A DNA stretch of 62,980 nt from a virus. The stretch covers positions 1 to 62,980 of the IMG/VR virus record IMGVR_UViG_3300025030_000105. One strand, 5' to 3'. Positions 1 through 62,980 of this stretch are shown here, piece by piece. The position numbers and the translations under genes are program-made. The notes under the pieces are model-generated. The model searched no databases, was not told the DNA's origin, and worked only from the letters and a program-made list of their open reading frames with translations. The first letter of the stretch is position 1. Every line of letters starts with the position of its first letter.

Positions 1-167
1 GCAGGAGCGCAGGAGCGCAGGAGCGCAGGAGCGCAGGAGCGCAGGAGCGCAGGAGCGCAGGAGCGCAGGAGCGCAGGAGCGCAGGAGCGCAGGAGCGCAG
101 GAGCGCAGGAGCGCAGGAGCGCAGGAGCGCAGGAGCGCAGGAGCGCAGGAGCGCAGGAGCGCAGGAG
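1..167. repeat. 8-bp tandem repeat array, left end
   Basis: The unit GCAGGAGC is repeated head to tail about 21 times with no visible variation, then breaks into unique sequence at 168. The same unit in the same orientation ends the window. An assembly that stops inside a repeat at both ends suggests one array in a circular or permuted molecule, with a true copy number that is unknown. Each unit contains the Shine-Dalgarno-like AGGAG, but no start codon follows. The array lies between the two divergent gene arms, near the small terminase gene, so a packaging, terminus or origin role is possible but unproven. Confidence 0.95.
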
Positions 168-10752: not shown

Positions 10753-10829
10753 CTGCGCGTAGCTCAGTCTGGTAGAGTACCTGGCTTGGACCCAGGGAGT
10801 CGCGTGTTCGAATCACGCCACGCAGACCA
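10753..10829 (+). tRNA. tRNA-Pro (anticodon UGG)
   Basis: A full 77-nt cloverleaf: acceptor CTGCGCG/CACGCAG, D arm GCTC/GAGT, anticodon arm CCTGG-CTTGGAC-CCAGG with TGG at 10787-10789, T arm GCGTG-TTCGAAT-CACGC, discriminator A and an encoded CCA. The sixth acceptor pair is a C-A mismatch (position 6 with 67), which may be tolerated or repaired by editing. It is transcribed with rtcB, which starts 24 bp downstream. It could supply CCA decoding or replace a host tRNA cut by a nuclease. Confidence 0.93.
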
Positions 10830-10853
10830 TTAAAATTACATAAGGAGAGCAAC

Positions 10854-12047
10854 ATGAAACAGATCATTGCTACCGACCGAGTACCTATTAAGTTGTGGCT
10901 TACTGACATCGAAGCAGGGGCACTTGCGCAGGCTAGAAACCTCGCAAACCTTCCATTCGTCTTCAAGCACATTGCTATTATGCCGGACGCTCACCAAGGC
11001 TACGGGATGCCCATAGGTGGCGTAATGGCGACCCAAGACGTCGTCGTTCCGAACGCTGTTGGCGTGGATATTGGTTGCGGAATGTGCGCCGTGAGGACCT
11101 CGCTCACTGATCTTGATCAAGAGGCGCTGCGTCGGATTATGGGAGGGTCGAATGAGTGTAAAGGAGGTATTAGGGGCAAGGTTCCTGTAGGGTTCGGGCA
11201 TCACTCAAAGAGGCAAAGCGAGGGTATTATGCCTGATATAGATTTCATGACTGACGACCTGCCTATCGTAAAACGAGAATATTTTTCCGCGCTGAAACAG
11301 ATAGGAACTCTTGGTGGCGGTAATCATTTCATTGAGATCCAAAAAGGTAGTGACGGTTTTATCTGGGTAATGATTCACTCCGGCAGCCGCAATATCGGCT
11401 ACCAGGTCGCGAAGTACTACAACAATCTGGCGATTTCGCTGAACGAGAAATGGCACTGCGCAGTACCCGCAACTTGGCAGCTTGCGTTCTTTCCTCTTGA
11501 CTCTGCTGAAGGTCAGAGCTACCTCACCGAGATGCAATACTGTGTAGACTTCGCCCTTGCAAGTCGGGAACTCATGATGAGCAACACACTCCTCAGCATT
11601 TCTGAAGTTGTTGGGGAACAGTTTTCATGCGACGACCCGATTAACATCGCGCATAACTACGCAGCTATGGAGCACCACTTTGGCAAGAATGTAATGATCC
11701 ATCGCAAGGGAGCGACGAAGGCAATGACCGGTCAGTTAGGGATTATTCCTGGAAGCCAAGGCACAGCCAGTTATATCGTGAAGGGAAAGGGCAATGCTGA
11801 GAGCTTCTTTTCATGCTCCCACGGAGCAGGGCGCCGAATGGGTCGAGGGCAGGCGCAGCGGGAGTTGTCACTCGACGGCGAGAAAGAAAAACTTGACACC
11901 ATTGGAGTAATTCACAGCGTTCGGAATACCTCCGATCTTGACGAAGCGCCAGGAGCGTACAAGGATATTTCAGAAGTGATGAAGAACCAAGAGGACCTGG
12001 TCGAGGTAGTTGTCGAGCTTCGTCCGTTGGCGGTTATTAAGGGCTGA
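10854..12047 (+). CDS. rtcB: RNA-splicing ligase RtcB
   Basis: A 397-residue Mn/GTP-dependent RNA ligase that joins 2',3'-cyclic phosphate or 3'-phosphate ends to 5'-OH ends. All family motifs are present: MPDAHQGYGMPIGG, GVDIGCGM (metal-binding Asp and Cys), GTLGGGNHFIE, HSGSRN, HNYA, HRKGAT and SCSHGAGR with the guanylated His323. The length is normal, so the enzyme looks active. It is preceded by AAGGAGAGCAAC and by tRNA-Pro under P3. In bacteria RtcB repairs tRNA and 16S rRNA cut by toxins; in a phage it likely counters host anticodon or ribosome nucleases. See the GGQ protein at 62278. Confidence 0.96.
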   Translation: MKQIIATDRVPIKLWLTDIEAGALAQARNLANLPFVFKHIAIMPDAHQGYGMPIGGVMATQDVVVPNAVGVDIGCGMCAVRTSLTDLDQEALRRIMGGSNECKGGIRGKVPVGFGHHSKRQSEGIMPDIDFMTDDLPIVKREYFSALKQIGTLGGGNHFIEIQKGSDGFIWVMIHSGSRNIGYQVAKYYNNLAISLNEKWHCAVPATWQLAFFPLDSAEGQSYLTEMQYCVDFALASRELMMSNTLLSISEVVGEQFSCDDPINIAHNYAAMEHHFGKNVMIHRKGATKAMTGQLGIIPGSQGTASYIVKGKGNAESFFSCSHGAGRRMGRGQAQRELSLDGEKEKLDTIGVIHSVRNTSDLDEAPGAYKDISEVMKNQEDLVEVVVELRPLAVIKG

Positions 12048-14002: not shown

Positions 14003-14244
14003 CCATAATCCCAATGCCGAGAGGCATAAAAATCTACAACGCCAGTACAGAACCCTGCGACACAGCGGTGGGACCTTGCTGCTGTGGAGCCTGGCATGAC
14101 CTAAGTGATATGCCTGAAGAAGTGCGAAAAGCACTTGCTTGTGCCGCCTGCGGCCAGCCGGCCACGCCGGACGACGGCCTCTGCACCGAGTGCGCGGAGA
14201 AACTTGACAAGCTGGCTTGTTCATTCGAGGGGAGGGAAGGATGA
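13999..14244 (+). CDS. small zinc-ribbon protein
   Basis: An 81-residue protein with CCCGAWH, CAACGQ and CTEC pairs, which form a probable zinc ribbon near the C-terminus. It lies between the exonuclease and the radical-SAM gene with ATGA overlaps on both sides. The function is unknown. Confidence 0.65.
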   Translation: MTIIPMPRGIKIYNASTEPCDTAVGPCCCGAWHDLSDMPEEVRKALACAACGQPATPDDGLCTECAEKLDKLACSFEGREG

Positions 14245-15173
14245 GAAATTCATTATATTGGGACGACTTCACCAGGAGGGCGGAAGAGACAATTGCTCAT
14301 GTAAAGGCAGGTACTGCGCCACCTGTCCGACGAGCCGCGGTCTTCGTTACGGATCGTTGCAACTTTAAGTGTGCGTATTGTAATCACTGTGTTACCGGCA
14401 GTACAATGTCGCAGGAGATGTTCGAGCACATACTTGCTAAGTACGGAGATTCTGCTATAATTCACATCACAGGCGGCGAGCCCTCAGTAGTGCCTTGGCT
14501 GTACCCATTCCTGCGAGAACAAGGGCACCGATATCGTTTTCACTTGAACACAAATGCATTCATCGTGCCTCCAGCGGAGGCGGTGCAGCGATTGAAGGTA
14601 TCGCTTGATTCTAACGATGCTAAGTATTGGAATTGTTTAGTTGGGCGGGATAATGCTTTCGCTATCGTCCTCAATAATCTCAAAAGGGCTTCTGAGAAAA
14701 CTGTAGCGTCAGTTACATACACTGTGACGCGAGAGAATTTCAATAACGCTGTAGCTTTTGCGAAGTTCATTTTTACTGAGGCGCCAAACTTGTACGCTGT
14801 CTTCTTCTCCATTTACAAAGGGACCGACGCAAGGTACTCTATGCAGCAGAACGATGTGGATGTATTCTTCGGCGAAACTATCCCTCATCTGTATGAAATT
14901 CTCCCTGATGAATCGGCAGCGCTACTCCGCGAGACGGTAGATGAGAAGCGTCGGCTTATACAAGGTGTGAGATTTGAGCAGGCCGCTGGTCCATGCTACC
15001 TATCGATGTCCGAACGGGTGTTTTCTCCAACCGGAGAAGAGTTCACATGCTCTCACTTATATCGCGACAAGATCTACATGACCGCGCCAGTAAAATGCGA
15101 CCGGTGCAAATACGGGTGTAACCAGAGGTTGGTGCAGTTCAATGATCTCGTTGCCAGGAGGTTGAGAAGATGA
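14241..15173 (+). CDS. radical SAM enzyme with SPASM-like C-terminus
   Basis: A 310-residue enzyme with the CxxxCxxC cluster CNFKCAYC (Cys40, Cys44, Cys47) that binds the 4Fe-4S cluster for S-adenosylmethionine cleavage. TGGEPS follows as the SAM-binding GGEP motif. The C-terminal 60 residues hold GPCYL, FTCSHL and CDRCKYGC, which resemble an auxiliary SPASM/Twitch cluster. The start at 14241 follows AGGGGAGGGAAGG with an ATGA overlap. The substrate cannot be inferred: peptide, tRNA or DNA-base modification are all possible. It is unusual among phage replication genes. Confidence 0.88.
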   Translation: MRNSLYWDDFTRRAEETIAHVKAGTAPPVRRAAVFVTDRCNFKCAYCNHCVTGSTMSQEMFEHILAKYGDSAIIHITGGEPSVVPWLYPFLREQGHRYRFHLNTNAFIVPPAEAVQRLKVSLDSNDAKYWNCLVGRDNAFAIVLNNLKRASEKTVASVTYTVTRENFNNAVAFAKFIFTEAPNLYAVFFSIYKGTDARYSMQQNDVDVFFGETIPHLYEILPDESAALLRETVDEKRRLIQGVRFEQAAGPCYLSMSERVFSPTGEEFTCSHLYRDKIYMTAPVKCDRCKYGCNQRLVQFNDLVARRLRR

Positions 15174-61741: not shown

Positions 61742-62257
61742 TTAGAAATTGATAGAAATATTAATCTGTTGTGCGTTCTGCACATCGCCGCCCTTCCCCT
61801 CTTTTGGGCTCAGATCGCCCCAAGTCACAGCCTGCTTAATACCGTCAAGACGGGTACTTGCCGGGGTTGCCGGGGAATAAACGAGCTGGTCCAGCACTTC
61901 AAGGTAGCTCTCCGCTTGGACGCGGGCCTTGTGCTTAAAACTCAGCCCGTTCTCCCGGACTTCTCGCATGGTGAGGGCAAGGTCCCTTCGGAACGAGGGG
62001 GTTCTCATCAGAGAACTGTAGTCGTCCTCGGAGAGGGAATATCTTTCTAAGATTGGGGTAGTGTCCTCGATCGCTAGGGCGAGGTCGAGGATGAGCCTCG
62101 GGTCCCAGGGGTTGACGTTGGGGGGGTGTTCCGCAGGAACCCACTGCGGCTTGCTTTTGGCTGGGACGAGCGATAGCTCGGAGGACTCCTCCTGCTCGTT
62201 GTCGTCGAACTCCAGGCCGGCGAAGAAATCTTCATTAAGTAGTGTTTGCGTGTCCAT
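61742..62257 (-). CDS. small terminase-like protein
   Basis: A 171-residue protein. The C-terminal two thirds, with RTPSFRRDLALTMREVRENG, SFKHKARVQAESYLEVLDQL, then PASTRLDGIKQAVTWGDLSP, match small terminase or terminase-associated proteins of N4-capsid-type phages. It is separated from the large terminase by more than 8 kb. The start at 62257 lies seven bases after the -10 box of a promoter and has no ribosome site, so the mRNA may be leaderless. ATG 62275, two bases after the upstream stop, could be used by coupling. Confidence 0.7.
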   Translation of the reverse strand: MDTQTLLNEDFFAGLEFDDNEQEESSELSLVPAKSKPQWVPAEHPPNVNPWDPRLILDLALAIEDTTPILERYSLSEDDYSSLMRTPSFRRDLALTMREVRENGLSFKHKARVQAESYLEVLDQLVYSPATPASTRLDGIKQAVTWGDLSPKEGKGGDVQNAQQINISINF

Positions 62258-62263
62258 AGGGGT

Positions 62264-62292
62264 AGTGTAACGCATTGTTACTTCGATGTCAA
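62264..62292 (-). promoter_or_regulatory. promoter of the small terminase gene
   Basis: On the minus strand TTGACA (62287-62292), a 17-bp spacer and TACACT (62264-62269). The expected start site is at about 62257, the first base of the ATG. It overlaps the end of the upstream gene. Confidence 0.72.
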
Positions 62293-62643
62293 GGAGATCT
62301 CCTCCCATCTCCCGTTTTCGTCTTTCCCTTCGACCTTCAAGTTTTCCGGCGCCATCGTCTTCTCCACCCGCTGCGCGGTCGTCTCGCCAGAGATGCACTC
62401 CAAGATTCGCTGCGACTGCCAGATCTTAAACTTCGGGTGCTCCAGCAGTGAGCGAAATGCCTCTTGGATATTTGCCGGCCTCTCCCGGTTCGATTGTCCT
62501 GTGGCGAAGGCTCCGGAGTCTCGGTGCCTTATGCGGACACAGTTCTGGTGTTTGTTCCGGTACTGCCCTCCGGCGCCGGTTCCGCTGAAGAAATCTATTT
62601 CGAGGTCTTTCTTCGTCACCGAGAAAAGTAGTTCTTTTGTCAT
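62278..62643 (-). CDS. GGQ-domain peptide-release protein (PrfH/ArfB-like)
   Basis: A 121-residue protein with the class I release-factor domain 3: FSGTGAGGQYRNKHQNCVRI, with Gly25, Gly26, Gln27, followed by SGAFATGQSNRERPANIQEA. The GGQ motif enters the ribosome and releases the peptide from P-site tRNA. The codon-recognition domains of RF1/RF2 are absent and the C-terminus is a short basic extension, so it is a stand-alone rescue factor. Bacterial PrfH is linked with an RtcB paralogue that repairs cut 16S rRNA; this phage also encodes RtcB. It is the first gene of the minus arm, behind TAAGGAGGGGAG. Confidence 0.88.
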   Translation of the reverse strand: MTKELLFSVTKKDLEIDFFSGTGAGGQYRNKHQNCVRIRHRDSGAFATGQSNRERPANIQEAFRSLLEHPKFKIWQSQRILECISGETTAQRVEKTMAPENLKVEGKDENGRWEEISLTSK

Positions 62644-62667
62644 CTCCCCTCCTTAGAATTTTCACTT

Positions 62668-62696
62668 ATTATATCAATATGTGTCTTGATTGTCAA
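62668..62696 (-). promoter_or_regulatory. consensus sigma-70 promoter of the minus arm
   Basis: On the minus strand a perfect TTGACA (62691-62696), a 17-bp spacer and a perfect TATAAT (62668-62673). The palindrome TCTTGA-TTG-TCAAGA (62684-62698) covers the -35 box, which suggests an operator. It initiates the whole packaging and virion arm. Confidence 0.9.
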
Positions 62697-62698
62697 GA

Positions 62699-62871
62699 TT
62701 TTAGGCAGGCAAGAAATTTTGAAAATTTTTACGCTGAGTTACTCCATTGTCAGGATTTTGGATTTCTGAGGGTTTCAGGTGTTTGGCCGCATGATAAGGG
62801 TCGCACGCCCTCCAGCTCCATCCCCCCAGCCGGCCCCGACGATATCACGACGATACCCCACCCCTTGTGGC
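62699..62871. other. non-coding segment before right array
   Basis: There is no credible ORF. It is AT-rich near 62700-62730, then GC-rich with C runs. A repeated CGAYGATAYC (about 62837-62858) is the only visible structure. Together with 1-330 it forms the divergent control region on both sides of the octamer array. Confidence 0.6.
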
Positions 62872-62980
62872 GCAGGAGCGCAGGAGCGCAGGAGCGCAGG
62901 AGCGCAGGAGCGCAGGAGCGCAGGAGCGCAGGAGCGCAGGAGCGCAGGAGCGCAGGAGCGCAGGAGCGCAGGAGCGCAGG
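62872..62980. repeat. 8-bp tandem repeat array, right end
   Basis: About 13.6 further copies of GCAGGAGC in the same orientation as the left array. The window ends mid-unit (GCAGG), and the phase does not join directly to base 1, as expected when an assembler stops arbitrarily inside a long repeat. Confidence 0.95.

What the first reader, a model, noticed from the sequence alone, without database searches (positions are those of the whole stretch)
62278..62643. GGQ-domain rescue factor together with RtcB: possible phage RNA and ribosome repair system
Bacterial operons pair an RtcB paralogue with PrfH, a GGQ protein that frees ribosomes whose 16S decoding site has been cut. This phage encodes both activities, and the GGQ protein is the first gene under the strongest consensus promoter. 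With tRNA-Pro it could form a dispersed system that undoes host attacks on translation.
Basis: partly seen in the sequence, partly recalled or inferred. Interest (0 to 1): 0.8.

Follow-up and report, generated by a model that had tools for sequence, protein, structure and literature searches.

The report
Phage GGQ protein, separate RtcB–tRNA-Pro cassette
An uncultured phage carries a small enzyme-like protein that probably frees stuck ribosomes and, 11 kb away, an RNA-mending enzyme paired with a proline tRNA; both are known phage gene types, but the proline-tRNA pairing turns out to be a recurring arrangement (sometimes inside the repair gene itself) that I did not find described.

Summary
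The ORF at 62278-62643(-) encodes a 121-aa stand-alone GGQ domain under the window's only perfect sigma-70 consensus promoter. An RtcB with an intact active site lies at 10854-12047(+), directly after a tRNA-Pro(UGG).

The GGQ protein is neither PrfH nor ArfB. It falls in a separate phage-dominated clade (PHROG 3122) and lacks both PrfH's decoding domain and ArfB's basic tail. The RtcB is not the PrfH-coupled RtcB2. The two genes sit about 11 kb apart on divergent transcripts. Across viral contigs they co-occur only weakly (4/31 against 1/36 random, p = 0.17). Within this phage group two complete genomes carry GGQ, RtcB and tRNA-Pro, and two (one only apparently complete) carry none. The one real linkage found is in M. 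abscessus prophages (tRNA array, GGQ, RtcB, Pth2).

Most likely: the GGQ protein is a codon-independent peptidyl-tRNA releasing factor, and RtcB repairs cleaved RNA independently.

By-product: in the window's RtcB clade, tRNA-Pro(UGG) genes sit beside rtcB in about 13 lineages, in two of them inside the rtcB reading frame. Ten of ten such contigs tested lack a GGQ gene.

The parts
62278..62643 (-). 121-aa stand-alone GGQ (RF-1 domain) protein, PHROG 3122 family
   Evidence: dN/dS about 0.04
62668..62696 (-). Perfect sigma-70 consensus promoter (TTGACA-17-TATAAT) upstream of the GGQ gene
   Evidence: present in G001, absent in G003
62646..62654 (-). Shine-Dalgarno AAGGAGGGG of the GGQ gene
61742..62275 (-). 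Next gene of the leftward transcript (about 177 aa; reads like a small terminase subunit to me, no family match), adjacent to GGQ in G001, G003, G084 and G085 and present without GGQ in G086 and G144
10753..10829 (+). tRNA-Pro(UGG) with encoded CCA, 24 nt upstream of rtcB
10854..12047 (+). RtcB RNA ligase, 397 aa, metal and GMP-site residues intact; 40% identical to E. coli RtcB, 30% to RtcB2
1..167 (.). (GCAGGAGC)n array, same unit as at 62870-62980: the assembly was opened inside one array
62870..62980 (.). (GCAGGAGC)n array at the other end of the record

Best explanation
The GGQ protein is an accessory translation-release factor of the phage: a release-factor catalytic domain without any stop-codon or decoding-centre reader. 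It most likely reaches the peptidyl-transferase centre of stalled or damaged ribosomes, or of split 50S subunits with bound peptidyl-tRNA, and hydrolyses the peptidyl-tRNA ester in a codon-independent way. Its conserved acidic C-terminal extension (FKxW ... PENLKVE) would replace the targeting role that ArfB's basic tail and PrfH's domains 2/4 play. RtcB with its tRNA-Pro(UGG) is a second, separately expressed and separately inherited module that reseals RNAs cut to 2',3'-cyclic-phosphate/5'-OH ends and supplies a spare tRNA. Both act on translation and may both help against host nucleases, but they are not one PrfH/RtcB2-type system. Shown here: domain identity, fold, purifying selection, missing targeting domains, phylogenetic separation, separate strands and transcripts. 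Inferred: hydrolase activity, the substrate, the benefit to the phage.
For: RF-1 domain with intact GGQ. AlphaFold model pLDDT 85.5; Foldseek best hits RF2/RF1 catalytic domains, with PrfH (9mor, 7sa4) and mtRF-R/C12orf65 (7a5h, on a split mitoribosomal large subunit) also found. Clade of small phage GGQ proteins separate from ArfB (100/99), RF2 and PrfH. Tail net charge -3 here (-8 to +1 across most of the family) against +9 to +18 in ArfB. dN/dS about 0.04. Relatives of the medium and large type sit in dense tRNA arrays: 278 tRNAs/327 kb against 25/1297 kb in random viral DNA, and in M. abscessus prophages a small-type relative is next to RtcB and Pth2. RtcB residues D75, C78, N167, H168, H185, H281, H337 (E. 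coli numbering) conserved.
Against: No biochemical evidence; sequence alone cannot show that a GGQ domain lacking both known targeting devices binds ribosomes. The window's own small-type GGQ genes mostly do not lie near tRNAs (2 of 15 loci), so the tRNA-array argument comes mainly from relatives.
Confidence: 0.55

Rival explanations
1. GGQ and RtcB together form a dispersed phage analogue of PrfH/RtcB2: the GGQ protein clears ribosomes with damaged rRNA or tRNA and RtcB reseals the RNA.
For: Both genes and tRNA-Pro occur together in two complete genomes of this group (window, G003) and are all absent from G144 (complete) and G086 (apparently complete). M. abscessus prophages have tRNA array, GGQ, tRNA-Glu, RtcB and Pth2 side by side. 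RtcB in 4/31 GGQ contigs of at least 35 kb against 1/36 random contigs.
Against: Neither protein belongs to the PrfH or RtcB2 family. Separate divergent transcripts 11 kb apart. 48 of 49 RtcB contigs lack an RF-1 domain; no RtcB in Bixzunavirus Colt, Omegavirus WXIN or Tunturi_3/4, which have GGQ. Enrichment p = 0.17; the 2-against-2 covariation may be a single evolutionary event.
Confidence: 0.18
2. The GGQ protein is a host-takeover factor that aborts host translation by untimely peptide release or competes with host RF1/RF2, rather than a rescue factor.
For: It lacks a codon reader, so it need not be selective; it is the first gene of a transcript under a very strong consensus promoter.
Against: Related genes lie with tRNAs, RtcB and Pth2, which support translation. 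The promoter is not conserved in G003. The gene heads a transcript that continues into late-type genes, when the phage needs translation.
Confidence: 0.15
3. The GGQ protein supports ordinary termination at phage stop codons or recoded stops, as other phage release factors may.
For: A related phage locus (L024) has a domain-1-less release factor near a tRNA with a UUA anticodon.
Against: The window protein has no domain 2/4 and so no PxT/SPF-type reader; no suppressor tRNA in the window.
Confidence: 0.05

Closest known systems
PHROG 3122 phage 'RF-1 domain peptide chain release factor' (e.g. Mycobacterium phage Colt gp201; Tunturi_3 gp125)
   Same: Length, GGQ core, C-terminal PKFxxW/PENLKxE-type motif, stand-alone in phages
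   Different: Window subtype has GTGAGGQYRNKHQNC instead of the more canonical GGQxxNK-type core; different neighbourhood; only 37-43% identity to named phages
PrfH with RtcB2 (E. coli rtcB2-prfH operon; PMC9223846, PMC1586002)
   Same: GGQ domain; an RtcB-family ligase in the same genome
   Different: No decoding superdomain, no operon with RtcB, RtcB not of the RtcB2 type
ArfB/YaeJ (and ICT1)
   Same: Stand-alone GGQ domain of similar length
   Different: No basic C-terminal tail, separate clade
mtRF-R / C12orf65
   Same: Short codon-reader-less GGQ protein; found by profile and by fold
   Different: C12orf65 has a positively charged C-terminal helical region (PMC6514570); mitochondrial; solved on a split large subunit with MTRES1 (title of PDB 7a5h)
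tRNA-GGQ-RtcB-Pth2 cluster of M. abscessus prophages (prophiT49-2, prophi86-1)
   Same: GGQ of the same clade plus an RtcB in one phage
   Different: There adjacent inside a tRNA array and with Pth2; here 11 kb apart, with one tRNA
Phage RNA-repair and tRNA sets (jumbo phages, PMC7824862; tRNA arrays with RF-1 and Pth, PMC5966550)
   Same: The idea that phage tRNAs, RtcB and peptidyl-tRNA hydrolases counter attacks on translation is already published
   Different: The jumbo-phage review describes Pth2, not a GGQ domain, as the peptidyl-tRNA hydrolase

Membership tests
PHROG 3122 phage GGQ proteins | Profile match over nearly the full length | tested here: met
   E 3.2e-20, residues 1-115
PHROG 3122 phage GGQ proteins | Groups with phage stand-alone GGQ proteins in a tree | tested here: met
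   24-row clade 100/99 with Bixzunavirus, Omegavirus, Tunturi and IMG/VR members, plus 3 rows from bacterial or archaeal MAGs
PrfH (TIGR03072) | Score above the curated cut-off | tested here: not met
   27.1 bits against 166.65; E. coli PrfH positive control 328
PrfH (TIGR03072) | Codon/decoding-centre recognition domain before the GGQ domain | tested here: not met
   GGQ starts at residue 25 of 121, against 120 of 204 in E. coli PrfH
PrfH (TIGR03072) | Operon with RtcB2 | tested here: not met
   RtcB about 11 kb away on the other strand; TIGR03073 144 bits against 271.8, NF007153 173 against 407
PrfH (TIGR03072) | Releases peptide on ribosomes with a cleaved 16S decoding centre | not testable with these tools
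   needs an in vitro assay
ArfB (NF006718) | Score above the curated cut-off | tested here: not met
   16.8 bits against 100
ArfB (NF006718) | Basic C-terminal tail for the mRNA channel | tested here: not met
   net charge -3 against +9 to +18
ArfB (NF006718) | Groups with ArfB in a tree | tested here: not met
   ArfB forms its own 100/99 group
RtcB ligase (Pfam PF01139) | Domain match and conserved metal/GMP-site residues | tested here: met
   E 5.7e-112; D75, C78, N167, H168, H185, H281, H337 equivalents conserved
RtcB ligase (Pfam PF01139) | 3'-phosphate/2',3'-cyclic-phosphate to 5'-OH ligation | not testable with these tools
   needs an assay
mtRF-R / C12orf65-like | Codon-reader-less GGQ protein with basic tail acting on the split large subunit | tested here: inconclusive
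   Sequence and fold hits (E 4e-10; Foldseek 9.8e-4) but no basic tail; substrate not testable

The most novel reading that the evidence does not exclude
Phage rtcB and tRNA-Pro(UGG) form a dedicated cassette: tRNA-Pro(UGG) genes have been placed beside rtcB, or inside its reading frame, repeatedly and independently, because this one tRNA is the target of a widespread host or competitor nuclease (or serves as bait or sensor for rtcB expression). In this phage the GGQ factor adds release of the ribosomes stalled by that cleavage.
Probability: 0.25. Interest if true: 0.8.

Novelty: new member of a known kind. Interest (0 to 1): 0.45.

Why it matters
Stand-alone GGQ proteins are widespread in phages, including about 190 sequenced mycobacteriophage records, yet I found no functional test of one. 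They lack both known ways of finding a stalled ribosome, so a release assay would show either a third targeting mode or a non-rescue role. Separately, the recurrent tRNA-Pro(UGG)-rtcB pairing points to one specific tRNA as the substrate of phage RtcB, which makes the open question of what phage RtcB repairs directly testable.

Tried and rejected
PrfH and ArfB membership: rejected. RtcB2 membership: rejected. Conserved promoter: rejected, absent in G003. Chance or decayed ORF: rejected (dN/dS). Strong GGQ-RtcB co-occurrence: not shown. A control set based on the window's exonuclease gave only 6 loci and was used for relatives instead. tRNA-Pro adjacency was not seen in 9 rtcB loci of cultured phages (8 with annotated features, none of them tRNA-Pro; one record has no annotation and was not rescanned) nor in the prophiT49-like RtcB group, so it is a feature of the window's RtcB clade. 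Three paper searches on phage GGQ or phage RtcB with release factors or tRNA-Pro returned nothing on point. PADLOC gave no match for GGQ or RtcB.

Full report
OBSERVATION. The ORF at 62278-62643 on the minus strand is real: 121 aa, ATG start, strong Shine-Dalgarno, intact GGQ. Pfam RF-1 E 6e-12; PHROG 3122 E 3e-20. Against the 92%-identical copy in relative G003 dN/dS is about 0.04. The promoter at 62696-62668 is the only 12/12 sigma-70 match in the window; relative G001 keeps it, relative G003 does not.

GENOME CONTEXT. The window is a virus record whose two ends carry the same 8-bp array, i.e. probably a circular map opened in the array. GGQ heads the leftward transcript, before a gene that reads like a small terminase subunit (no family match); RtcB (10854-12047) is on the rightward transcript 24 nt after a tRNA-Pro(UGG) that encodes its CCA. 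On the circular map the distance is about 11 kb. In G003 (64.2 kb, 127-nt terminal overlap) the layout is the same: GGQ 92%, RtcB 93%, tRNA-Pro. Relatives G086 (63.4 kb, no end overlap found, but genes run on across the join) and G144 (61.8 kb, 127-nt terminal overlap) have the same polymerase, primase and portal genes but none of the three. The partial relatives G084 and G085 have a GGQ gene of another subtype at the same place; their RtcB region is not in the contigs.

WHAT THE GGQ PROTEIN IS. It does not reach the PrfH (27.1 against 166.65 bits) or ArfB (16.8 against 100) cut-offs. In a 79-sequence maximum-likelihood tree of GGQ domains (few columns, so only strong branches are used) it lies in a 24-row clade of small GGQ proteins, 21 of them from phages (100/99), while ArfB (100/99) and RF2 (97/98) are separate. 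Its tail is acidic (net -3) where ArfB tails are +9 to +18. The AlphaFold model (pLDDT 85.5) matches the catalytic domains of RF2 and RF1 first, then PrfH and C12orf65 on a split mitoribosomal large subunit. So it is a release-factor catalytic domain with neither a codon/decoding reader nor an ArfB-type tail, and with its own conserved C-terminal extension.

RELATION TO RTCB. The RtcB has all catalytic residues checked but is not the RtcB2 that accompanies PrfH (144 against 271.8 and 173 against 407 bits, with the E. coli RtcB2 as positive control). Of 34 viral contigs with the GGQ family 4 hold RtcB; of 49 with the nearest RtcBs one holds an RF-1 domain; a length-weighted random sample gave RtcB in 1 of 36. 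For contigs of at least 35 kb the comparison is 4/31 against 1/36, p = 0.17. Records may be fragments, so absence is weak evidence. Of five named phages with the GGQ gene only the M. abscessus prophage prophiT49-2 has RtcB, and there tRNA array, GGQ, tRNA-Glu, RtcB and Pth2 are neighbours. That is real support for a shared role in some phages. PMC5966550 already noted RF-1, Pth and tmRNA genes in mycobacterial tRNA arrays, and PMC7824862 proposed phage tRNAs, RtcB and Pth2 as ribosome rescue.

GGQ AND tRNAs. Relatives with extra release-factor parts (medium and large types) lie in dense tRNA arrays (278 tRNAs in 327 kb against 25 in 1297 kb of random viral DNA). The small type, to which the window belongs, does so only in 2 of 15 loci.

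tRNA-Pro AND RTCB. Among the 80 nearest rtcB loci and a second, overlapping set of 80 found with the L089 RtcB, tRNA-Pro(UGG) lies on the same strand within about 165 nt of rtcB, upstream or downstream, or within the gene, in about 13 lineages; expected by chance in that much DNA about 0.04. Of 20 tRNAs within 700 nt in the second set 14 are Pro(UGG). The tRNAs are very divergent, all keep C1-G72, A73 and the UGG anticodon, and the cloverleaf shows strong covariation (97.6% of cells paired, 18 of 21 pairs with changes on both sides). In L089 and L106 the tRNA lies in frame inside the rtcB ORF, at the same hypervariable loop after 'MP'; Rfam confirms both (63.7 and 57.3 bits against a 29-bit threshold). 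In a quick RtcB tree these two are not sisters (L089 with L077, L106 with L137, SH-aLRT 95-96) and the sisters show no tRNA there, so either two insertions or losses occurred. Ten tRNA-Pro/rtcB contigs were tested for an RF-1 domain and none had one (L068, L087, L088, L089, L091, L106, L123, L125, L129, L136). The cassette is therefore independent of the GGQ gene. It was not seen in the rtcB loci of cultured phages that I read or in the prophiT49-like RtcB group.

MECHANISM. Shown: domain, fold, selection, absence of known targeting parts, opposite strands. Inferred: codon-independent peptidyl-tRNA hydrolysis on stalled ribosomes or 50S; repair of cleaved RNA, perhaps tRNA-Pro, by RtcB. A joint PrfH/RtcB2-like function is possible (0.18) but not supported by family membership, linkage or a significant co-occurrence.

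LIMITS. Loci were found with short peptide patterns, not by exhaustive search, so rates are for these samples. Tree resolution on a GGQ domain of about 100 residues is limited. Library searches covered open-licence papers only.

VERDICT. A new member of a known phage protein family, in a genome with a conventional-looking RtcB; moderate interest. The recurring tRNA-Pro(UGG)-rtcB pairing is the more unusual result and deserves its own follow-up.

Noticed in passing
L060, L068, L080, L087, L088/L091, L123, L125, L129, L131, L136, L564/L565 (beside rtcB) and window 10753-12047: tRNA-Pro(UGG) lies on the same strand within about 165 nt of rtcB, upstream or downstream, in many divergent uncultured phages; far above chance and scattered over the RtcB tree.
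   Followed up: yes
L089:3355-3431 and L106:3364-3440: A tRNA-Pro(UGG) gene with a good Rfam score lies in frame inside the rtcB coding sequence, at the same variable loop in two lineages that are not sisters; the ORF reads through it as about 25 extra residues.
   Followed up: partly
L203 (OQ417962.1 61390-69722) and L209 (MW584160.1 63294-68626): M. abscessus prophages carry tRNA array, GGQ, tRNA-Glu, RtcB and Pth2 as neighbours.
   Followed up: partly
L024:1888-1962: A tRNA with anticodon UUA (reads UAA) close to a phage release factor that lacks domain 1; possible stop-codon recoding.
   Followed up: no
L027, L035, L041, L044, L047, L048, L050: Phage release factors of about 180-200 aa with domains 2-4 but no domain 1 inside arrays of 10-38 tRNAs.
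   Followed up: partly
window 14217-15173 (+): Radical-SAM protein with a weak match to prokaryotic viperin models (PADLOC pVip, E 1e-9).
   Followed up: no
window 1-167 and 62870-62980: Long perfect (GCAGGAGC)n array in the intergenic region between the divergent transcripts; the record was opened inside it.
   Followed up: partly
L227, L236, L244, L245: Lentisphaerota genomes encode a GGQ domain followed by a conserved C-terminal region of about 75 residues, in a separate long-branched group.
   Followed up: no
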